Positions 830-23,604 of a DNA stretch of 64,000 nucleotides are shown here, piece after piece. The notes below the pieces were generated by a model. That model did no database searches, was not told where the DNA came from, and saw nothing but the letters and a program-made list of their open reading frames with translations. The stretch is from NCBI GenBank assembly GCA_006739055.1, contig AP019702.1:3063388-3127387 (forward strand), written 5' to 3'. Positions within the stretch are counted from its first letter, which is position 1. Each line of letters begins with the position of its first letter. The translations under genes were made by a program, and so were the position numbers. Source of the stretch: Allostella vacuolata. Its GTDB lineage: Bacteria > Pseudomonadota > Alphaproteobacteria > ATCC43930 > Allostellaceae.

Positions 830-4276
<3,447 letters not shown>

Positions 4277-4278
4277 CC

Positions 4279-5121
4279 ATGGCAGCCGCCCGCGTCTCCG
4301 TCATCATCCCGGCCTATCGGGCCGAGGCGACCATCGGCCGCGCCGTCCGCAGCCTGCTCGACCAGACGCTGAGTGACTGGGAGGCGGTGGTCGCGGCCGA
4401 CGACGGGGCGGACTACGCGGCCGTGCTGGCGGCCAGCGGCATCGCCGACGCCCGCATCCGTCATGTCCGGACGCCCCGGCCACGGACCGGCGCGCCGGGC
4501 GCCCGCAATGCCGCCTGGGCGGCGGCCGCGGGCGGCGTGGCCGCGCCGCTGGACGCCGACGACGCCTGGTTCCCGCGCCGGCTGGAGGTGCTGCTGCCGA
4601 TCGCGGAAGGCCATGGCGCCGCCGCCGACAACGTCCGGGTGGTCGACGAGGCGACCGGCCGCGTGCTCGGGATGCTGTTCCCGGAGGCGGAGGGCGACCG
4701 GCTGCTTGACGCCGAGGCGTTCCTGGCGACGTCGGTGCCGATCATGGCACTGGTCCGGCGCGACCACATGGCGGGCTGGGACGCCGATGTCGATCTCTGC
4801 GACGACCTGCCGTTCAACCTGCGGGCGATCGACCGGGCCGGGGGGCTGCCGGTGACCGCCGAGCCCCTGCACGAGTACCGGGTGCGAGACGGCTCCATCT
4901 GCCATTCGCCGGACTCCGATCGCCGCGCCGACCGCGGCTACGCCACCTGCCTCGCCCGGCTCGAGGCGGACGGGATGGGCCTCGCCGACCCGGCGATCCG
5001 GGCGGCCTTCCGCCGATCGCTGGTCGCCAAACGCGCCCTCAATCGTGCCTATGCCGAATGGCGGGACCGCCGGCCGGGCGGGGGAACCTTCCAGGAGTTC
5101 GTCGCTGCCGCCCAAAGGTAG
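4279..5121 (+). CDS. family 2 glycosyltransferase
   Basis: A 280-residue GT-A fold glycosyltransferase. The N-terminal VSVIIPAYRAEATIGRAVRS strand-helix, the GAPGARNAAW helix and the LDADDAWFPRR motif (the DXD-type metal and nucleotide-sugar site) are plain. There is no signal peptide or membrane segment, so it should be cytosolic or loosely bound to the inner face of the membrane. It uses a nucleotide sugar, but donor and acceptor cannot be deduced. Its ATG lies 2 bases after the dnaE stop, which suggests co-translation with dnaE. It is followed by the rpsB promoter. No other sugar-polymer gene adjoins it. Confidence 0.85.
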   Translation: MAAARVSVIIPAYRAEATIGRAVRSLLDQTLSDWEAVVAADDGADYAAVLAASGIADARIRHVRTPRPRTGAPGARNAAWAAAAGGVAAPLDADDAWFPRRLEVLLPIAEGHGAAADNVRVVDEATGRVLGMLFPEAEGDRLLDAEAFLATSVPIMALVRRDHMAGWDADVDLCDDLPFNLRAIDRAGGLPVTAEPLHEYRVRDGSICHSPDSDRRADRGYATCLARLEADGMGLADPAIRAAFRRSLVAKRALNRAYAEWRDRRPGGGTFQEFVAAAQR

Positions 5122-15303: not shown

Positions 15304-16323
15304 ATGGCCGATCCCCGATTCCACGAGCTGGCCGGCCCCTGGTCGCTGGCGGACCTGGCCCGGCTGACCGGCGCGGAACCGCGCCCCGGCGAACGCGGCG
15401 ACATGTTCCACGACGTGGCCCCGCTCGACGCGGCCGGTCCGGGCGACGTCGCCTTCGTCGAGGACCGCCGCTATTTCGAGGCGCTCGGCGACAGCGGCGC
15501 AGGGGCCTGCTTCATCCATCCGGATGCGGCGGGCCGCGCCCCCGCCGGCATGGCCCTGCTCGTCACCAAGGGGCCGCAGCGGGCATTCGCCATCGCCGCC
15601 GCCGCCTTCCACCCGCCGGATCCGTTGACGCCCGGGGTCGCCGCTACTGCCTGGGTGGATCCCACGGCAGAGGTCGACCCGACCTGCCAGATCGCGCCCG
15701 GCGCGTGCGTCGGCGCGGGCGCCCGCTTGGCCGCCGGCGTGCTGGTCGGGCCCAATGCCGTGGTCGGCCGCAACTGCGTGCTCGGCGCCGGAACCAGGGT
15801 CGGCCCCGGGGCCAGCGTCACCCACGCGCTGGTCGGCGAGCGGGTGACGATCCATGCCGGCGTGCGCATCGGTGCGGACGGCTTCGGAGTCGTCCCCGGC
15901 CGCGACGGGCACGTCAAGATTCCGCAACTCGGGCGTGTCATCATCCACGACGATGTGGAGATCGGCGCCAACAGCACCATCGACCGCGGGGCGCTCGGCG
16001 ACACCGTCGTCGGACCGGGCTGCTTCATTGATAATCTGGTGCAGATCGGGCACAACGTCCGCCTGGGTCGAGGCTGCATCATCGCAGCCCAGGTGGGCAT
16101 TTCCGGCAGCGCCATCCTTGGCGACAACGTCATGATGGGCGGGCAGTCGGGCCTGACGGGGCATATTCGGATCGGCGACGGCGTCCGGGTCGCGGCCCAG
16201 AGCGGTGTGATGCGCGAAGTGCCCGCCGGCACGAGCATGGGCGGCAGTCCCGCCGTCCCGCTGCCGGAATTCCTGCGGCAGACCGCACTGCTTCGTCGGT
16301 TGGTGAAAGGGAAAGGCGCTTAG
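15304..16323 (+). CDS. lpxD: UDP-3-O-acyl-(amino)glucosamine N-acyltransferase
   Basis: 339 residues. It adds the second 3-hydroxyacyl chain in lipid A synthesis. An N-terminal uridine-binding domain is followed by a left-handed beta-helix of hexapeptide repeats (for example [20 protein letters not shown] and [20 protein letters not shown]) and the catalytic-histidine region [16 protein letters not shown]. The C-terminus forms the usual helical tail ending RLVKGKGA. It lies between skp and fabZ in the standard lipid A gene order. Confidence 0.96.
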
Positions 16324-16327
16324 GAGC

Positions 16328-16792
16328 ATGGACGGCAACGAGCCCGCGGTCACCGGGTTGACCATCGACATCGAGCGCGTGATGGCGATGATCCCGCACC
16401 GCTACCCGTTCCTCATGATCGACCGGGTGGTCGAGGTGGTGGCGAACGAAGGCTGCGTCGGCATCAAGAACGTCTCGATCAACGAACCGTTCTTCCAGGG
16501 CCATTTCCCGGGCAAGCCGGTCATGCCGGGCGTGCTGATCATCGAGGCGATGGCCCAGACCTCCGCTGTCCTGGTCGTCCACACGCTGGGCGAGGCGTCG
16601 GAAGGCAAGCTCGTCTATTTCATGTCGGTGGACGGGGCGCGCTTCCGCAAGCCGGTCGGCCCCGGCGACCAGCTGCGTGTGCATGTCCGCAAGGAGCGTA
16701 GCCGGGGCAACGTCTGGAAGTTCTCCGCCGAGGCCAAGGTCGACGGCCAGCTCGTCGCCGAGGCGACCTACGCCGCAATGATCCTCGATTAG
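16328..16792 (+). CDS. fabZ: 3-hydroxyacyl-ACP dehydratase
   Basis: 154 residues, hot-dog fold. It dehydrates 3-hydroxyacyl-ACP in fatty acid elongation and competes with LpxA and LpxD for the same 3-hydroxyacyl-ACP pool. The catalytic histidine and glutamate are in [35 protein letters not shown] is the N-terminal signature. The ATG at 16328 follows TAGGAG made partly from the lpxD stop (gap 4 bases). Located between lpxD and lpxA, the usual place. Confidence 0.97.
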
Positions 16793-16812
16793 GAGCCTCG
16801 GCTTCCCCTCTC

Positions 16813-17610
16813 ATGACCAATATTCATCCGACGGCCGTCGTGGCCCCGGGCGCCGAGATCGGCGACGGGGTGACGATCGGGCCGTTCTGCTGCGTCGGCG
16901 AGAACGTCCGGCTCGGCGATGGCGTCACGCTGGTTTCCCATGTCGTCGTCGACGGGCACACGACGATCGGGCAGGGGACGCGTGTCTTCCCCTTTGCCGC
17001 CCTTGGCCTGCCGCCGCAACACCTGCGCTACAAGGGCGAGCGGGTGCTGCTGGAGATCGGGCGCGACAACCAGATCCGCGAGCATGTCACCATGCACCCC
17101 GGCACCTCGTTCGGCAGCGGCCGGACGCGGATCGGCGACAATGGGCTGTTCATGGTGGGCACGCATGTCGCCCATGACTGCGAGATCGGCAACCACGTCA
17201 TCATGGCCAACAACGCCACGCTGGGCGGCCATGTGCATGTCGACGACCACGCCTATCTGGGCGGCCTGTGCGCCGTGCACCAGTTCGTCCGCATCGGCCA
17301 TCACGCCATGATCGGCGGCATGTCGGGGGTGGAAAGCGACGTCATTCCCTATGGCTCGGTGATGGGCGACCGGGGCCGCCTGTCCGGCCTCAACGTGGTC
17401 GGGCTGAAGCGCCACGGCTTCTCGCGCGAGGACGTGCACCGGCTGCGCAGCGCCTACCGGCTGCTGTTCGCGCAGGAAGGGACGATGGCCGAGCGGATCG
17501 TCGACGTGGCGGAGCTGTTCAACGATCACCCGCCGGTCATGGACATCGTCAACTTCATCCGCGAGGACTCGACCCGGTCGATCTGCCAGCCGCGGGCGAA
17601 TGGCGGGTAA
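16813..17610 (+). CDS. lpxA: UDP-N-acetylglucosamine (or GlcNAc3N) acyltransferase
   Basis: 265 residues, first enzyme of lipid A synthesis. Hexapeptide-repeat beta-helix from IHPTAVVAPGAEIGDGVTIG onward; the catalytic histidine is in THVAHDCEIGNHVIMANNAT. The helical tail begins LKRHGFSREDVHRLRSAYRL. The glycine equivalent to E. coli Gly173, in the VMGDRG stretch, is kept, which in known LpxA proteins goes with a long (about C14) hydroxyacyl chain. The nearby gnnA-gnnB pair suggests the acceptor could be UDP-GlcNAc3N. It overlaps lpxI by 11 bases. Confidence 0.96.
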   Translation: MTNIHPTAVVAPGAEIGDGVTIGPFCCVGENVRLGDGVTLVSHVVVDGHTTIGQGTRVFPFAALGLPPQHLRYKGERVLLEIGRDNQIREHVTMHPGTSFGSGRTRIGDNGLFMVGTHVAHDCEIGNHVIMANNATLGGHVHVDDHAYLGGLCAVHQFVRIGHHAMIGGMSGVESDVIPYGSVMGDRGRLSGLNVVGLKRHGFSREDVHRLRSAYRLLFAQEGTMAERIVDVAELFNDHPPVMDIVNFIREDSTRSICQPRANGG

Positions 17611-18427
17611 GCTCGGCATCATCGCCGGCCGCGGCCCCCTGCCGCGCCAGGCGGCCGCCGCCTGCCGGGCCGGGGAGCGGCCCTACTTCATCCTTGGCCT
17701 GGAAGGCGAGACCGAGCCGGAGACCCTCAACGAGGGCCCCAGCGCTATCGTGCGCATGGGCGCGGTCGGCACCGCGCTGAGCATCCTGCGCAGCAACGGG
17801 GTCGAGGAGGTGGTCATGGTGGGGCGGGTCCAGCGGCCGGCCCTGTCGGCGCTCCGCCCGGACTGGACGGGCACGCGCCTCCTGGCCCGCATCGGCATCC
17901 GGGCGGCCGGGGATGACGGCCTGCTGTCGGCGGTGGTGGCGGAACTGGAGCGGGAGGGGTTCCGGGTCGTCGGTATCGAGCAGATCCTGGAATCCCTGCT
18001 GATCGCCGAGGGGCCCGTCGGGCGCCATCGGCCCGACGCCACCGCCGCGGCGGATATCGAGCGCGGGCGCGAGGTGGCGACGATCCTGGGCCGGCTCGAC
18101 GTGGGGCAGGGCGTCGTCGTCCAGAAGGGAACCGTGCTCGCGGTCGAGGCGGTCGAGGGCACCGATGCCATGATCGCGCGGGCGGGGGCGATCCGGCTCG
18201 AGCCGCAGGGTGGCGTCCTGGTCAAGATGCGCAAGCCGCAGCAGGAGCGCCGGGTGGACCTGCCGACGATCGGCACCGCGACCATCGACCGGGCGGCGGC
18301 GGCCGGGCTGGCCGGGATCGCGGTCGAGGCGGGGGGCGCCCTGGTGGTCGACCGGCAGGCGGTGGCGGATGCGGCCGACGCGGCCGGGCTGTTCGTCGTC
18401 GGCATCCCGCCGCTTCCGGTCGCCTGA
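17600..18427 (+). CDS. lpxI: UDP-2,3-diacylglucosamine pyrophosphatase LpxI
   Basis: 275 residues, formerly the DUF1009 family. It hydrolyses UDP-2,3-diacylglucosamine to lipid X and UMP, the step done by LpxH in E. coli. The N-terminal KLGIIAGRGPLPRQAAAACR, the central RAAGDDGLLSAVVAELEREG and the C-terminal DLPTIGTATIDRAAAAGLAG and GGALVVDRQAVADAAD stretches are characteristic. The start overlaps the lpxA end and lpxB follows by 11 bases, so the lpxA-lpxI-lpxB order of alphaproteobacteria is kept. Confidence 0.94.
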   Translation: MAGKLGIIAGRGPLPRQAAAACRAGERPYFILGLEGETEPETLNEGPSAIVRMGAVGTALSILRSNGVEEVVMVGRVQRPALSALRPDWTGTRLLARIGIRAAGDDGLLSAVVAELEREGFRVVGIEQILESLLIAEGPVGRHRPDATAAADIERGREVATILGRLDVGQGVVVQKGTVLAVEAVEGTDAMIARAGAIRLEPQGGVLVKMRKPQQERRVDLPTIGTATIDRAAAAGLAGIAVEAGGALVVDRQAVADAADAAGLFVVGIPPLPVA

Positions 18428-18438
18428 GCGGCCCGCCC

Positions 18439-19614
18439 ATGGCCGGCCCGATCCCGACCATCTTCCTGATCGCGGCCGAGCCCTCCGGCGACGCCCTGGG
18501 CGGCCGGCTGATGGCGGCCCTGTCGCGGCAGTTGGACGGACAGGTGGCCTTCGACGGCATCGGCGGCGAGCGCATGGCGGCGGCGGGGCTCGTCAGCCGC
18601 GTCCCCCTGTCGGCCCTGTCGCTGTTCGGGGTGTTCGAGGTGCTGCCCCAGGCGATGCGGATCCTGCGCCTGGTGCGCGACACGGCCGACGCCATCGTGG
18701 CGGCGAAGCCCGCCGCCGTCGTCACCATCGATTCCTCGGGCTTCAACTTCCGGCTCGCCCGGCGCCTGCGCCAGGCGGGTTATGCCGGGCCGCTCGTCCA
18801 CTACGTCGCGCCGCAGCTGTGGGCCTGGTGGCGCCCGGCCAAGGCCCGCGCGCTCGTCGCCTGGTACGACCGGGTGCTGGCGCTGTTTCCCTTCGAGCCC
18901 GCCTTCTTCGCCGGCCACGGGATCGACTGCCGGTTCGTCGGCCATCCGGCGATCGAGGAGGGCTTCGGGGACCGGGCCGATCCCACGTTCCGCGAACGGC
19001 ACGGGATCCCGCCCGGGGTACCCGTGCTGGCCGTCCTGCCCGGCAGCCGCGGGTCGGAGATCAAGCGCCTGCTGCCGATCTTCGCCGACGCCACGGCCGA
19101 ACTGGCACGGCGGATTCCCGGCCTGCACGTCGTCCTGCCGACCGTGCCGACGGTGGCCGACCGGGTCGCCCAGGCGGTGGCCGGCTGGGGCGTTCCCGTG
19201 ACCGTCATCCGCGACCGGCGCGACAAGCCGGCCGCCTTTGCCGAGAGCACGGCCGCGCTCGCCGCCTCCGGCACGGTGACGCTCGAACTGGCGCTGAGCG
19301 GCACGCCCTTCGTCGTCGGCTACCAGCTGAACGCCCTGACCGCCTGGCTGCTGCGCCGCAAGGCGACCGTCCGCTACGCCACGATGGTGAACCTGCTGAT
19401 GGACCGCGCCATCGTCCCGGAGCTGCTGCAGGAGGCCTGCACGGCGGCGGCCCTGGCCGACGCGCTGGAGTCGCTGCTGACCGACCCCGCCGCTCGGGAG
19501 CGACAGCGCCGCGACCTGGCCGTGGCCATCGGCCGGCTCGGACTGGACGGCGCACCGCCCAGCGAGCGCGCCGCGGCAGAGGTCTTGTCGCTCATGGCCG
19601 CGCGGACGGGGTGA
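18439..19614 (+). CDS. lpxB: lipid A disaccharide synthase
   Basis: 391 residues, family 19 glycosyltransferase that joins UDP-2,3-diacylglucosamine to lipid X. Signatures: FLIAAEPSGDALGGRLMAAL, GIGGERMAAAGLVSRVPLSA, VHYVAPQLWAWWRPAKAR, AVLPGSRGSEIKRLLPIFAD and the donor-site GTVTLELALSGTPFVVGYQ. It is the last gene of the long plus-strand cluster. Its last 23 bases overlap the end of the convergent MFS gene. Confidence 0.96.
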   Translation: MAGPIPTIFLIAAEPSGDALGGRLMAALSRQLDGQVAFDGIGGERMAAAGLVSRVPLSALSLFGVFEVLPQAMRILRLVRDTADAIVAAKPAAVVTIDSSGFNFRLARRLRQAGYAGPLVHYVAPQLWAWWRPAKARALVAWYDRVLALFPFEPAFFAGHGIDCRFVGHPAIEEGFGDRADPTFRERHGIPPGVPVLAVLPGSRGSEIKRLLPIFADATAELARRIPGLHVVLPTVPTVADRVAQAVAGWGVPVTVIRDRRDKPAAFAESTAALAASGTVTLELALSGTPFVVGYQLNALTAWLLRRKATVRYATMVNLLMDRAIVPELLQEACTAAALADALESLLTDPAARERQRRDLAVAIGRLGLDGAPPSERAAAEVLSLMAARTG

Positions 19615-20863
19615 GGCGGGCGGCCGCCCGCTGGTCGCTGGGCCGCACGTCCGGCACCCGTGTATAGGCGGCCAGTCCCAGCACCAGGACCGCGGCCAGA
19701 TAGGCGAAGACGCAGCGATAGGCAGCCTCCGGATAGGCCCCGTCGCTGGCCCCGAAGGCGCCGACGATGACGCCTGACATGGTCTGGCCGATGGCGACCC
19801 CCAGCATCGTCGACATGTTGAGGACGGTCAGGCCGCGCCCGGCCATGGTGTCGGGCAGCAGGCCCCGGCTGTGGGTCTGCAGGATGATGGTGATCGAACC
19901 GCCGAAGGCCAGCGCCATGAAGAGCAGGGTCGCCAGCCACAGGGGCGGCGCGGACAGGAGCGCCAGCGTCGAGAGCACGCAGATGGTGACCGTGCCGCCG
20001 CACAGGACCAGGCGCTTGCGCGTATCGAAGATGCGGTCGAGCGGTCCGTAGGACAGGTTGCCGGCGATCGAGGCGATGCTCATCGCGAACAGCACCTGGC
20101 CGCGGCCGACCGCGTCCAGCCCGTGCACGTCCGCCAGGTAGGGGCCGCCCCACAGGCCGAGCACGGTCAGCACGGCCGACAGCGTGCAGAGGTGGATGGC
20201 GAAGAAGTACTTGATCGCCGGGATGCGCCAGACCCGGGGCAGGCCGCGCAGGATGACGCCGAGCGGCTCGGCGCGTCCGCCGGCCGGGGCCCATCCGGGC
20301 GGACCGTCGCGGACCAGGAAGACCAGCAGCAGCACCAGCAGGGCGGTCGCGACCCCGGCGCCGGCGAAGGTCGCCCGCCAGCCGATCGCCTCCACGGCGA
20401 GCGCCAGCGGCCAGGTGGCGAGGATGATCCCGCCCGCCCCGGTCGCGACCATGACGCTGATCGCGGTCGCCAGCCGGTCGGGCGGGAACCAGCGGGCGAA
20501 GGTCATGATGGAGCCCATCAGGACGCCGGCCGAGCCGATCCCCAGCAGGATGCGGCCCGCCACCAGCCCCGGCACCGTGTCGCTGGCCGCGAACACGAAC
20601 GCGCCCGCGACGGCGACCAGCAGCAGGCCGATATTGGTCAGCCGCGGGCCATAGCGGTCGAGCAGCACGCCGATCGGGAGCTGGGCCAGCGCGAAGGCGA
20701 AGAAGAAGGCGCCGGTCAGCGCCCCCATCGCGTCCGAGGTCAGCTCCAGCTCGCGCATCAGGTCGGGCGCAATGACCGCGTTGGTCGCCCGGAAGAACTG
20801 GCTGGCGATGTAGACGAGCCCCAGCGTCGGGACCAGCAGCAGGGCCCGACGGCGGGGCGTCAC
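19592..20863 (-). CDS. MFS transporter
   Basis: 423 residues with about twelve hydrophobic segments in two halves separated by a charged loop near residues 190-210, the usual major facilitator plan. GIGSAGVLMGSIMTFARWFP resembles the helix 4-5 motif and LPIGVLLDRYGPR is the motif A loop between helices 2 and 3. The substrate is unknown. The start is a GTG one base after the stop of the gnnB-like gene, so it is very likely the last gene of a gnnA-gnnB-MFS operon. Its end overlaps lpxB by 23 bases tail to tail. Confidence 0.85.
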   Translation of the reverse strand: MTPRRRALLLVPTLGLVYIASQFFRATNAVIAPDLMRELELTSDAMGALTGAFFFAFALAQLPIGVLLDRYGPRLTNIGLLLVAVAGAFVFAASDTVPGLVAGRILLGIGSAGVLMGSIMTFARWFPPDRLATAISVMVATGAGGIILATWPLALAVEAIGWRATFAGAGVATALLVLLLVFLVRDGPPGWAPAGGRAEPLGVILRGLPRVWRIPAIKYFFAIHLCTLSAVLTVLGLWGGPYLADVHGLDAVGRGQVLFAMSIASIAGNLSYGPLDRIFDTRKRLVLCGGTVTICVLSTLALLSAPPLWLATLLFMALAFGGSITIILQTHSRGLLPDTMAGRGLTVLNMSTMLGVAIGQTMSGVIVGAFGASDGAYPEAAYRCVFAYLAAVLVLGLAAYTRVPDVRPSDQRAAARLTPSARP

Positions 20864-20864
20864 C

Positions 20865-22013
20865 TCAGCCGGCCGCCGCCCGGACGATGCCGGCGATCCG
20901 CTCCACCGTCGCCTGGTCCAGTTCGGAATGCATGGGCAGCGACAGGTTGCGCTGGCCGAGCCGCTCCGTCACCGGCAGCGAGCCCGGCCCCTCGGACGTC
21001 GCCTTGAAGGCGGCGTGCAGGTGCAGCGCCTGCTCGTAATAGACCCGGCTCGGGATCTTCTCGGCCGCAAGCGCGGCCTGGATCGCGCTGCGGCGATCCG
21101 ACAGGATGGTGTAGAGGGCCCAGGCGGAGGTGTGGCCGGCCGGGCGGTGCGGCACCGCCACCACCCCTGCCAGCGCCCGGTCGTAGGCGCTGGCGGCCGC
21201 CTCGCGGCGCGCCAGGTCATCGGGGAACGCCTCCAGCTTGACCAGCAGGATCGCCGCCTGGAGGGTGTCCAGGCGCCCGGTCATGCCGATTTCCAGGCAC
21301 TCGCCGCGCGCGTCCTGCCCGTGCATGCGCAGGCGGCGATAGGTATCGGCGCGGTCGGCGTCGTCGGTGAAGAGCGCCCCGCCGTCGCCGGCCGCCCCCA
21401 GCGGCTTGGCCGGGAAGAAGCTGGTCATGGTGGCCGGCGCCAGGCGGCCGACGCGGCGGTTGCCGACGGTGGCGCCGAAGCTCTGGGCGGCGTCGGACAG
21501 CATGAACATGCCTTCGCTCTCGGCCAGCGCGCCGATCGCGGCGTAGTCGGCCGGCAGGCCGAAGATGTCGACCGGCATCACCGCGCGCGGCTTGTACAGC
21601 CCGGCCCGGCGCACGGCCGCCACGCGGCGCTCGAGGTCCGCCGGGTCCATGGTGAAGCTGCGCTCGTCGATGTCGACGAAGATCGGCGCCGCGCCGACCG
21701 AGGCGACCGCCTCCGCCGTCGAGACGAAGGTGAAGGCGGGCACGAAGACCGCGTCGCCGGGCCCGATGCCCTCGGCCATCAGCGCCAGCAGGATCGCATC
21801 ATGGCCGCTGCCGGTGGTCACCACCTGGCCGCCGCCGACATAGTCCGCCAGCGCCGCCTCGAGCTCGCGCACCTCCGGCCCGAGGATGAACTGGCCATGG
21901 TCCATCACCCGGCGGATGCGCTCGTCGAGCCGCTCGCGCAGGCGACGGACCTGGCCCGGGATGTCGACGAAGGGAATGGGAGCGGGAACGGGGGCGGGGG
22001 CTGTGTCAGGCAT
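20865..22013 (-). CDS. gnnB: DegT/DnrJ/EryC1/StrS aminotransferase, probable UDP-GlcNAc3N-forming GnnB
   Basis: 382 residues from the ATG at 22013, chosen because GAGAAGAG precedes it. It is a PLP-dependent sugar aminotransferase: the PLP lysine is about residue 203 in SFFPAKPLGAAGDGGALFTD and the ring aspartate about 184 in MLSDAAQSFGA. GnnB transfers an amino group to the 3-keto sugar made by GnnA, giving UDP-2-acetamido-3-amino-2,3-dideoxyglucose. The start overlaps the gnnA-like stop by 8 bases and the lpx genes adjoin. Family is certain; the GnnB role is inferred from context, and WlbC/WbpE-like roles remain possible. Confidence 0.7.
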   Translation of the reverse strand: MPDTAPAPVPAPIPFVDIPGQVRRLRERLDERIRRVMDHGQFILGPEVRELEAALADYVGGGQVVTTGSGHDAILLALMAEGIGPGDAVFVPAFTFVSTAEAVASVGAAPIFVDIDERSFTMDPADLERRVAAVRRAGLYKPRAVMPVDIFGLPADYAAIGALAESEGMFMLSDAAQSFGATVGNRRVGRLAPATMTSFFPAKPLGAAGDGGALFTDDADRADTYRRLRMHGQDARGECLEIGMTGRLDTLQAAILLVKLEAFPDDLARREAAASAYDRALAGVVAVPHRPAGHTSAWALYTILSDRRSAIQAALAAEKIPSRVYYEQALHLHAAFKATSEGPGSLPVTERLGQRNLSLPMHSELDQATVERIAGIVRAAAG

Positions 22014-22965
22014 GGCTCTTCTCGATCGGGACGGCGGCGCCGCCGCTGCGGATGGACTGGATGACGGCAAGCGCGGTCGCCAGCGCGTCGCGGCCGTCGC
22101 GGCCGCCGACCACCGGCCGGCGCCCGGTCGCGATGCAGCCGAGGAAGGAATCGATCTGGGCGCCGAGCGGGTCGGCGTCGGGCTGGGCGGCCTCGATCGT
22201 GGTCGGCGCGTCGCCGCGCACCGAGGCCCGGGTCGCCGACAGGCGGCGGCCCTGCAGGTCGATCGCGATCTCGCCCGAGCCCTGCAGGACCCGCAGGCTG
22301 CGCTCGGCCACCGGGCTGACCCGGCTGGCCAGCAGGGTGGCCCGGGCGCCGTTGGCGAAGCGCAGCTGGCCGGCGGCGACGTCCTCGCTGTCGGACACCA
22401 CCCGCCGCCCGACGCCCGAGGCTTCGACCACCGGCGAGCGGATCAGGGCGGTGACGAGGTCGATATCGTGGATCATCAGGTCGAGGACGACGCTGACGTC
22501 GGCGCCGCGGCCGCGGAACGCGGTGAGGCGCCGGGCATCGACGAAGGCCGGGTCGTCGAGCACGGCCTCGAAGCCGAGCCCGGCCATCGAGAAGCGCTCG
22601 AGATGACCGACCTGGAGCACGATGCCGGCCGCCTCGGCGCGCGCGATCATCTGGTCGGCCTCGTCCAGGGTGACGGCGACCGGCTTCTCGACCAGGACAT
22701 GGATGCCGGCCTGGATGCATTCGCAGGCGATGGCGAAATGGAAGGGGGTCGGGGCGCAGATGCTGACGGCATCGACCCGGCCGGCCAGCCGCGCCAGGTC
22801 GGTCCAGGCTTCTGCGCCGTGGGGCCGGCCGATGGCATCGGCACGCTGGGGATCGGTGTCGACGACCGCGACCAGGCGGGCGGCGGGATGGCGGGCATAT
22901 TTCTCGGCGTGGAAGCGGCCGATATGTCCGGCACCGATGACGGCGCAACGAACGGGCTGGGGCAT
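22006..22965 (-). CDS. gnnA: Gfo/Idh/MocA oxidoreductase, probable UDP-GlcNAc 3-dehydrogenase GnnA
   Basis: 319 residues from the ATG at 22965 (a TTG at 22983 would add six residues). The Rossmann motif VIGAGHIGRFHAEKYARH, the catalytic-lysine motif VEKPVAVTLDEAD, VGHLERF and LDLMIHDIDLVTAL identify the family. GnnA oxidises the 3-hydroxyl of UDP-GlcNAc with NAD+. Immediate coupling to a DegT aminotransferase and closeness to lpxA/lpxI/lpxB support that role, since gnnA-gnnB lies among lpx genes in other bacteria. No strong ribosome-binding site is seen. The nearest alternative is a WlbA-like dehydrogenase for an O-antigen sugar. Confidence 0.7.
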   Translation of the reverse strand: MPQPVRCAVIGAGHIGRFHAEKYARHPAARLVAVVDTDPQRADAIGRPHGAEAWTDLARLAGRVDAVSICAPTPFHFAIACECIQAGIHVLVEKPVAVTLDEADQMIARAEAAGIVLQVGHLERFSMAGLGFEAVLDDPAFVDARRLTAFRGRGADVSVVLDLMIHDIDLVTALIRSPVVEASGVGRRVVSDSEDVAAGQLRFANGARATLLASRVSPVAERSLRVLQGSGEIAIDLQGRRLSATRASVRGDAPTTIEAAQPDADPLGAQIDSFLGCIATGRRPVVGGRDGRDALATALAVIQSIRSGGAAVPIEKSHA

Positions 22966-23157
22966 GGATTCGCGACTGGCCAACGAGACGGGCGCAATCT
23001 AGCGACCGGCCGGCCCGACGGTAACCCGCAATCCGGTCAAAGATTGTGACCTTCGGTGACCGGAGAAGCGGGTTTATCCGGCCGCCGCCGGCCGCTACGA
23101 TGCAGGGCAGGACCGGTGCTCGACCGCCAGCCCGGTCGATGGAACGGAGCTCCTGCC
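22966..23157. other. divergent intergenic region gnnA / gloA
   Basis: 192 bases between the gnnA ATG and the gloA ATG. It must hold both promoters. I see no convincing -35/-10 pair; the best for gloA, TTATCC then TACGAT with a 16-base spacer (about 23073-23100), is weak. GGAACGGAG at 23141-23149 serves gloA as ribosome-binding site. Confidence 0.4.
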
Positions 23158-23604
23158 ATGAATGAAGTTTCCCCCGCCCCCACCGCTGCTGCGACGGCCG
23201 AGGCCGGCGGCGCCGGCCCCCGCTTCCTGCACACCATGCTGCGGGTATTCGACCTCGACCGCTCGCTCGCCTTCTATACCGAACAGCTCGGCATGAAGCT
23301 GATCCGCAAGAAGGACTACCCGACCGGCGAGTTCACGCTGGCGTTCGTCGGCTATGGCGACGAGGCCGACAGCACGGTGCTCGAGCTGACCCACAACTGG
23401 GGCCAGAAGGAGCCCTACGTCCTCGGCAGCGCCTTCGGCCATCTCGCCATCGGCGTCGCCGACATCTACGGGGTGTGCGAGCGCCTGGGTGCGGCGGGCG
23501 TCAAGATCCCCCGGCCGCCCGGCCCGATGAAGCATGGCGGCAGCGTCATCGCCTTCGTCGAGGATCCCGACGGCTACAAGATCGAGCTGATCCAGAAGGG
23601 CTGA
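23158..23604 (+). CDS. gloA: lactoylglutathione lyase (glyoxalase I)
   Basis: 148 residues. It converts the methylglyoxal-glutathione hemithioacetal to lactoylglutathione. Two beta-alpha-beta-beta-beta modules are seen: FLHTMLRVFDLDRSLAFYTE with the first metal histidine, then the ELTHNWG strand with a metal glutamate, FGHLAIGVADIYGVCERLG with the second histidine, and FVEDPDGYKIELIQKG with the second glutamate. An Ala-rich 25-residue N-terminal extension precedes the domain. The ATG at 23158 is preferred over in-frame upstream codons because of GGAACGGAG upstream. Confidence 0.93.
   Translation: MNEVSPAPTAAATAEAGGAGPRFLHTMLRVFDLDRSLAFYTEQLGMKLIRKKDYPTGEFTLAFVGYGDEADSTVLELTHNWGQKEPYVLGSAFGHLAIGVADIYGVCERLGAAGVKIPRPPGPMKHGGSVIAFVEDPDGYKIELIQKG

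What the first reader, a model, noticed from the sequence alone, without database searches (positions are those of the whole stretch)
16813..22965. Probable amide-linked (GlcN3N) lipid A: gnnA-gnnB operon facing lpxA-lpxI-lpxB
A Gfo/Idh/MocA dehydrogenase and a DegT aminotransferase overlap by 8 bases and lie tail to tail with lpxB, a few kb from lpxA. GnnA and GnnB are known to turn UDP-GlcNAc into UDP-GlcNAc3N for LpxA (shown in Acidithiobacillus ferrooxidans, where they are among lpx genes). I infer that this bacterium builds lipid A wholly or partly on diaminoglucose, with four amide-linked chains. The sequence proves only the two enzyme families and the position.
Basis: partly seen in the sequence, partly recalled or inferred. 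Interest (0 to 1): 0.6.

Follow-up and report, generated by a model that had tools for sequence, protein, structure and literature searches.

The report
Diaminoglucose lipid A genes beside lpxB
Next to its lipid A genes this bacterium carries a dehydrogenase and an aminotransferase that very likely make the diamino sugar through which lipid A chains are held by sturdy amide bonds; the chemistry is already known elsewhere, but here the aminotransferase seems to come from a different lineage than the usual one.

Summary
The genes are real. lpxD-fabZ-lpxA-lpxI-lpxB (+) face gnnA-gnnB (-), which overlap by 8 bases.

GnnA is secure: best PDB sequence 7bvj (A. ferrooxidans GnnA, recalled), 164 bits, next 73; 351/364 bits against GnnA profiles versus 101 against the dehydrogenase of WlbA-B-C-like clusters. 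GnnB is less clear: in the best trees it lies with WbpE and WlbC-like enzymes, not with the lpx-linked GnnBs of other phyla, but an AU test does not reject the latter placement (p 0.20).

Context supports the pathway. All 4 genomes of the genus hold the pair between lpxB and gloA; in the sister family lpxB and gloA are adjacent in 15 of 19 regions fetched and none shows gnnA or gnnB. LpxA of the genus has H74/R76 (E. coli numbers) in its GlcNAc pocket; 24 of 24 sister-family LpxAs keep D74/K76.

Most likely the pair makes UDP-GlcNAc3N for LpxA. No chemistry was tested; full versus hybrid backbone is open.

The parts
22006..22965 (-). gnnA: Gfo/Idh/MocA-family UDP-GlcNAc 3-dehydrogenase (first possible start TTG 22983)
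   Evidence: PF01408 E 1.4e-30; best PDB sequence 7bvj 163.9 bits, next 73.0; NF040723 UDP-GlcNAc 3-dehydrogenase best NCBIfam model, 181 bits, below its cut-off of 450; GnnA profiles 351.0 and 363.9 bits against 100.9 for the WlbA-B-C-cluster dehydrogenase profile
20865..22013 (-). gnnB: DegT-family, PLP-dependent nucleotide-sugar 3-aminotransferase, WbpE/WlbC-like lineage
   Evidence: PF01041 E 1e-95; best PDB 4qgr 362 bits, WbpE 3nu7 306 bits, with the motif of the WbpE PLP lysine conserved; tree
19592..20863 (-). MFS transporter, third gene of the block, role unknown
   Evidence: PF07690 E 4.1e-45; present at this place in G000, G001, G002, absent in G003
16813..17610 (+). lpxA, acceptor of the UDP-sugar; His121 kept, His70/Arg72/Gly138 in the GlcNAc pocket (E. 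coli 125; 74/76/142)
   Evidence: NF003657 372 bits, cut-off 226; residues
17600..18427 (+). lpxI, UDP-2,3-diacylglucosamine pyrophosphatase
   Evidence: PF06230 and PF17930 over cut-off
18439..19614 (+). lpxB, lipid A disaccharide synthase
   Evidence: TIGR00215 237.5 bits, cut-off 190
15304..16323 (+). lpxD
   Evidence: TIGR01853 341.8 bits, cut-off 242.5
16328..16792 (+). fabZ
   Evidence: TIGR01750 196.2 bits, cut-off 155
23140..23604 (+). gloA-like glyoxalase I, the other border of the site that holds the gnn block
   Evidence: TIGR00068 156.3 bits, cut-off 120; next to lpxB in 15 of 19 sister-family regions

Best explanation
gnnA and gnnB are the two-step route from UDP-GlcNAc to UDP-GlcNAc3N: GnnA oxidises the 3-OH of UDP-GlcNAc with NAD+, GnnB transaminates the 3-ketone, and the one LpxA of the genome acylates the new 3-amine, so that lipid A is built wholly or partly on 2,3-diaminoglucose with amide-linked primary chains at position 3. 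Shown here: the enzyme families, the pair's place beside lpxB in 4 of 4 genomes of the genus, the GnnA-type identity of the dehydrogenase, and an LpxA sugar pocket changed in this genus. Inferred: substrates, products, and lipid A structure. The aminotransferase probably derives from the WbpE/WlbC side of the family rather than from the lpx-linked GnnB of other phyla. Whether both sugars of the backbone or only one are diaminoglucose cannot be read from sequence.
For:: 7bvj 163.9 bits, next chain 73.0, WlbA-like chains 3q2k 62.6 and 3q2i 43.7 (chain identities recalled); profile scores 351.0/363.9 versus 100.9; 42.3% mean identity to 79 GnnA of named genomes, 38.8% to 7bvj, 30.5% to 13 dehydrogenases of WlbA-B-C-like clusters; of the 80 best GnnA loci kept (a capped list), 60 have lpxA, B, D or I in the stretch held and 27 have a gnnB match; pair in 4 of 4 genus genomes; empty site in the sister family. 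LpxA residue 142 is Gly in 48 of 49 gnnA-bearing and 37 of 99 gnnA-lacking genomes; Asp74 in 31 of 49 versus 90 of 99; Lys76 in 30 of 49 versus 94 of 99. PMC7072397 (passages) lists Asp74 and Lys76 (E. coli), and Ala138 of P. aeruginosa, which by the offset of 4 is E. coli 142, in the GlcNAc pocket, and notes that L. interrogans lacks the Lys. LpxC and LpxK each once in the genome; gnnB is one of two strong DegT matches in the genome; the other (L194) is a different type.
Against: No biochemistry. GnnB does not group with the lpx-linked GnnBs of other phyla in the best trees. The AU tests reject neither genus+classic GnnB (p 0.201) nor genus GnnA + WlbA-B-C-cluster dehydrogenases on one side (p 0.378). 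The LpxA differences are correlations: with a tree only 2 independent pairs on supported branches could be used, too few for a test; among 34 LpxAs of other phyla in gnnA loci, residue 142 is Ala in 26 and Lys76 is kept in 22; 37 of 99 gnnA-lacking alphas also have Gly142. GnnA is below the NCBIfam cut-off of NF040723.
Confidence: 0.82

Rival explanations
1. The pair belongs to a UDP-GlcNAc3NAcA-type (WlbA/WlbC, WbpB/WbpE) route for O-antigen or capsule, acting on the uronate form.
For: GnnB is 52.2% identical on average to 12 aminotransferases of WlbA-B-C-like clusters and 43.9% to WbpE, against 40.2% to 25 lpx-linked GnnBs, and falls on their side of the tree.
Against: GnnA is clearly not the dehydrogenase of such clusters. 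In 9 of 10 such clusters a WlbB/WbpD-like acetyltransferase gene lies between the two (one compared with PDB, best 3mqg 219.5 bits); here the genes overlap and none is adjacent. The place beside lpx genes fits lipid A. The WbpE two-sequence profile scores this GnnB lower (311.9) than the lpx-linked GnnB profile (335.6). I did not search the genome for a UDP-GlcNAc 6-dehydrogenase or for WlbB.
Confidence: 0.1
2. The pair makes UDP-GlcNAc3N, but LpxA uses it only in part, so that the backbone is hybrid GlcN3N-GlcN.
For: Hybrid backbones with gnnA/gnnB homologues are reported for Granulibacter bethesdensis and Capnocytophaga canimorsus (passages); LpxA here keeps the general catalytic residues.
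Against: C. canimorsus has two lpxA genes; G000 has one LpxA match. The changed pocket residues would fit specialisation, but this is untested.
Confidence: 0.4
3. The neighbourhood is accidental and the pair serves another sugar.
For: In 33 of the 36 alpha loci fetched outside the genus gnnA is not next to lpxB, so linkage is not obligatory.
Against: Same site in 4 of 4 genus genomes; a lone gnnA stands tail to tail with lpxB in 3 of those 36 (L061, L065, L070); lpx linkage in 60 of the 80 GnnA loci.
Confidence: 0.06

Closest known systems
GnnA/GnnB of Acidithiobacillus ferrooxidans
   Same: Two enzyme families, gene pair linked to lpx genes, GnnA clade (7bvj, identity as A. ferrooxidans GnnA recalled; the paper by Manissorn et al. 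2020 seen only as a reference line in PMC9132286).
   Different: Block on the opposite strand at the lpxB-gloA junction with an MFS gene; GnnB of another lineage in the best trees; GnnA 38.8% identical.
gnnA/gnnB of rhizobia and relatives (Phyllobacterium, Mesorhizobium, Bradyrhizobium, Brucella)
   Same: Alphaproteobacteria with the genes; GlcN3N lipid A shown chemically in Phyllobacterium (PMC5644692, abstract start and passages).
   Different: There the genes are reported away from lpxD-A-B; here they adjoin lpxB.
Granulibacter bethesdensis
   Same: gnnA and gnnB candidates by similarity; GlcN3N in lipid A (PMC8036547, passages).
   Different: Hybrid GlcN3N-GlcN backbone; two gnnB candidates; gene order not seen by me.
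WlbA-WlbB-WlbC / WbpB-WbpD-WbpE clusters
   Same: Aminotransferase of the same side of the family.
   Different: Different dehydrogenase type, an acetyltransferase between, uronate substrate (substrate recalled).

Membership tests
GnnA (UDP-GlcNAc 3-dehydrogenase) | Sequence groups with GnnA rather than with WlbA-B-C-cluster dehydrogenases | tested here: met
   the AU test does not exclude a basal position (p 0.378)
GnnA (UDP-GlcNAc 3-dehydrogenase) | Gfo/Idh catalytic EKP motif and His of the HD motif kept | tested here: met
   E99 K100 P101 and H172 invariant in 19 aligned sequences; their catalytic role is recalled
GnnA (UDP-GlcNAc 3-dehydrogenase) | NAD+-dependent oxidation of UDP-GlcNAc | not testable with these tools
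   needs an assay
GnnB of the lpx-linked (A. ferrooxidans-like) clade | Groups with lpx-linked GnnBs of other phyla | tested here: inconclusive
   Best trees place it on the WbpE/WlbC side (one search support 100), scores 335.6 versus 506.8-521.4 bits; AU test p 0.201. A. ferrooxidans GnnB itself was not available.
GnnB as a function (3-aminotransferase paired with GnnA) | DegT family, PLP lysine, operon with gnnA | tested here: met
WlbA-B-C / WbpB-D-E pathway | Acetyltransferase gene with the pair and dehydrogenase of that type | tested here: not met
GlcN3N lipid A | Diaminoglucose backbone with amide-linked position-3 chains | not testable with these tools
   needs chemical analysis
GlcN3N lipid A | LpxA able to acylate a 3-amine | tested here: inconclusive
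   Pocket residues 74, 76, 142 differ between gnnA-bearing and gnnA-lacking alphas but no phylogenetic test was possible

The most novel reading that the evidence does not exclude
In Alphaproteobacteria the second step of GlcN3N synthesis was taken over by aminotransferases of the WlbC/WbpE kind (uronate-sugar enzymes), paired with a true GnnA, and LpxA was retuned at the GlcNAc pocket (residues 74, 76, 142) in step with it; the block then sits at a fixed lpxB-gloA site that some families fill with gnnA-gnnB, some with gnnA alone, and some leave empty.
Probability: 0.4. Interest if true: 0.55.

Novelty: new member of a known kind. Interest (0 to 1): 0.38.

Why it matters
Amide-linked lipid A resists alkali and changes outer membrane properties and immune recognition. 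If the reading holds, this genus is a clean place to study how the trait comes and goes: the site is filled in all four genus genomes held and empty in the sister-family regions fetched, and LpxA differs between them at pocket residues that could be tested for selectivity between UDP-GlcNAc and UDP-GlcNAc3N. It also warns that annotating gnnB by similarity alone does not tell it from WlbC/WbpE.

Tried and rejected
Co-occurrence of gnnA and gnnB: 46 of 47 gnnA-bearing alphas have a gnnB-like hit at E <= 1e-85 against 53 of 242 without gnnA (counted by eye from the listings; Fisher). I do not use it as proof, because gnnB-like hits include aminotransferases of WlbA-B-C-like clusters: 10 of the 20 gnnB regions fetched hold that dehydrogenase type, two of them in gnnA-bearing genomes. 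First LpxA comparison (35 against 37) was enlarged (49 against 99); the gnnA-lacking set is not random (18 were the closest LpxAs loci, 19 then 40 picked from the listing mainly one per family, 22 sister family). Independent-pairs test gave 2 usable pairs: inconclusive. Rows dropped: L057 and L100 (apparent copies of one contig) and 8 partial duplicate dehydrogenases from the GnnA tree; L118 and L194 from the second GnnB tree, L112 not counted among lpx-linked GnnBs; named GnnAs thinned from 79 to 31. The GnnA tree had very long outgroup branches and was repeated without them. Promoter and terminator scan of 19400-23400: no promoter-like site and one weak terminator-like site inside the glyoxalase stretch, not used. 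Papers: searches.
Full report
What is there. The window shows lpxD, fabZ, lpxA, lpxI and lpxB on the + strand (15304-19614) and, on the - strand, an MFS gene (19592-20863), a DegT-family aminotransferase (20865-22013) and a Gfo/Idh/MocA dehydrogenase (22006-22965), followed across a divergent gap by a glyoxalase I gene. The 8-base overlap is right. The statement that the pair lies tail to tail with lpxB is not: the MFS gene lies between and ends inside the last 23 bases of lpxB. The genome (G000, 5.83 Mb, one contig) is unnamed. The class is Alphaproteobacteria by this reasoning: contig C238 of G258, a genome of the same class, has the same length (5376) and the same match position (4076-5011) as a record titled Alphaproteobacteria bacterium.

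GnnA. The best PDB sequence is 7bvj/7bvk (163.9 bits; next 73.0). That these entries are A. ferrooxidans GnnA is recalled; I saw the paper only as a reference line (PMC9132286). The best NCBIfam model is an archaeal UDP-GlcNAc 3-dehydrogenase, below its cut-off (181 of 450 bits). Against profiles built here the window protein scores 351.0 (GnnAs of named genomes), 363.9 (alpha GnnAs outside the genus) and 100.9 bits (dehydrogenases of clusters with the order dehydrogenase-acetyltransferase-aminotransferase); 7bvj behaves alike (336.8, 323.9, 139.4). Mean identity is 42.3% to 79 named GnnAs and 30.5% to 13 dehydrogenases of those clusters. In the trees those 13 are one side of a branch (support 99, 100) and the genus lies with the GnnAs and 7bvj (support 88). 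Holding the genus together with the 13 is not rejected (p-AU 0.378), which leaves a basal position open.

Clusters used as contrast. Of 20 regions fetched around gnnB-like genes, 10 hold the other dehydrogenase type upstream of the aminotransferase, and in 9 of these 10 the gene between is a hexapeptide acetyltransferase; one of the nine is closest to 3mqg (219.5 bits; recalled as WlbB). I call them WlbA-B-C-like; their substrates were not tested.

GnnB. The best PDB sequence is 4qgr (362 bits; recalled as Brucella), then WbpE (306 bits). In a tree of 73 rows, WbpE and its kin, 4qgr, the genus, other alpha aminotransferases next to gnnA and those of WlbA-B-C-like clusters form one set of 46 rows (support 100), apart from 26 lpx-linked or gnnA-linked GnnBs of other phyla. 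The nearest supported set of the genus holds 5 alpha aminotransferases that stand next to gnnA (96; not starred). Profile scores are 335.6 (other-phyla GnnB), 506.8 (alpha WlbC-like), 521.4 (alpha next to gnnA) and 311.9 (WbpE plus one relative, two sequences); identities 40.2, 52.2, 50.2 and 43.9%. The higher alpha scores may partly reflect shared class. The AU test does not reject joining the genus to the other-phyla GnnBs (log-likelihood 27.4 lower, p 0.201). One gammaproteobacterial pair, L112, has a gnnB on the WbpE side too (support 88). Residue 223 of WbpE is Arg in 14 of 14 WlbC/WbpE-like rows, never among the three commonest states in the other-phyla GnnBs, Arg in 7 of 8 alpha aminotransferases next to gnnA, and Ser or Glu in the genus; its role is unknown to me.

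Place and history. All 4 genus genomes hold gnnA-gnnB between lpxB and gloA; the MFS gene is there in 3. Of 27 sister-family genomes none has a GnnA above 30% identity at E <= 1e-20 (2 weak hits of the other dehydrogenase type). In 19 sister-family regions fetched, 15 have lpxB and gloA adjacent (within about 215 bases), 2 have lpxB then gltA without a gloA match, 1 has no gloA match in the stretch, 1 ends within lpxB, and none has a gnnA or gnnB match. In 36 of the 45 other gnnA-bearing alphas, gnnA is tail to tail with lpxB in 3 (two of them with gloA, gltA and gltX beyond, as here) and next to a gnnB in 8, never both. In the class sample 47 of 289 genomes have GnnA at E <= 1e-45, with at least 16 changes of presence on an LpxA tree.

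LpxA. G000, G001 and G002 have one LpxA match each; G003 has a second on another contig. At E. coli position 142 Gly stands in 48 of 49 gnnA-bearing and 37 of 99 gnnA-lacking alphas; Asp74 in 31 of 49 and 90 of 99; Lys76 in 30 of 49 and 94 of 99. By family majority: Gly142 22 of 23 against 25 of 66 (Fisher p 1e-6), not-Lys76 8 of 23 against 4 of 66 (p 0.0017), not-Asp74 7 of 23 against 7 of 66 (p 0.042). The genus has His74, Arg76, Gly142; the sister family Asp74 and Lys76 in 24 of 24, and Ala142 in 17, Gly142 in 7. Within family f110, gnnA-bearing G138 and G222 have Gly142 and gnnA-lacking G293 has Ala142. Two genomes of family f30, with a gnnB beside a divergent GnnA-like gene, share His74, Arg76, Gly142 though they count as gnnA-lacking. 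PMC7072397 (passages) puts these positions in the GlcNAc pocket, gives the Lys as a 6-OH contact in P. aeruginosa, and reports its absence in L. interrogans LpxA, which I recall to be selective for UDP-GlcNAc3N. Limits: the tree-based test had 2 usable pairs; in 34 LpxAs of other phyla from gnnA loci, 142 is Ala in 26 and Lys76 stays in 22. So this is a hint of adaptation, not a rule.

Reading. LpxC and LpxK are each present once, so the pathway enzymes looked for are there. The best reading is the GnnA/GnnB route to UDP-GlcNAc3N feeding LpxA. That route is reported for A. ferrooxidans (PMC8036547 and PMC3342949, passages) and GlcN3N lipid A is known in several Alphaproteobacteria. The genus therefore joins a known kind. 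What seems less known is the lineage of the aminotransferase and the LpxA pocket: searches listed no paper that treats either, but the library holds only openly licensed papers and I read passages, not whole texts.

Noticed in passing
window 19592-20863: MFS transporter gene between gnnB and lpxB, present in three and absent in one genome of the genus; no function assigned.
   Followed up: partly
L047 (G003:C222:1-16698): A second, different lpx locus with lpxA-lpxI-gnnA in the draft genome G003 (LpxA about 46% identical); second locus or contamination.
   Followed up: no
L103, L095, L108: gnnA-gnnB beside an lpxA; L103 (Ectothiorhodospiraceae) has a second lpxA nearby, reminiscent of the two lpxA genes of Capnocytophaga canimorsus.
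   Followed up: no
L282 and L287 (G167, G247): gnnB next to a divergent GnnA-like gene (33-34% identity), with LpxA residues His74, Arg76, Gly142 as in the window.
   Followed up: partly
L065/L297 (G050) and L068/L294 (G192): gnnA without a gnnB beside it, while the reported gnnB-like gene sits in a WlbA-B-C-like cluster: one aminotransferase might serve both routes.
   Followed up: no
L112: Gammaproteobacterial gnnA-gnnB pair whose gnnB falls on the WbpE side of the tree.
   Followed up: no
L035 and L038: gnnA matches reported with one in-frame TGA each.
   Followed up: no
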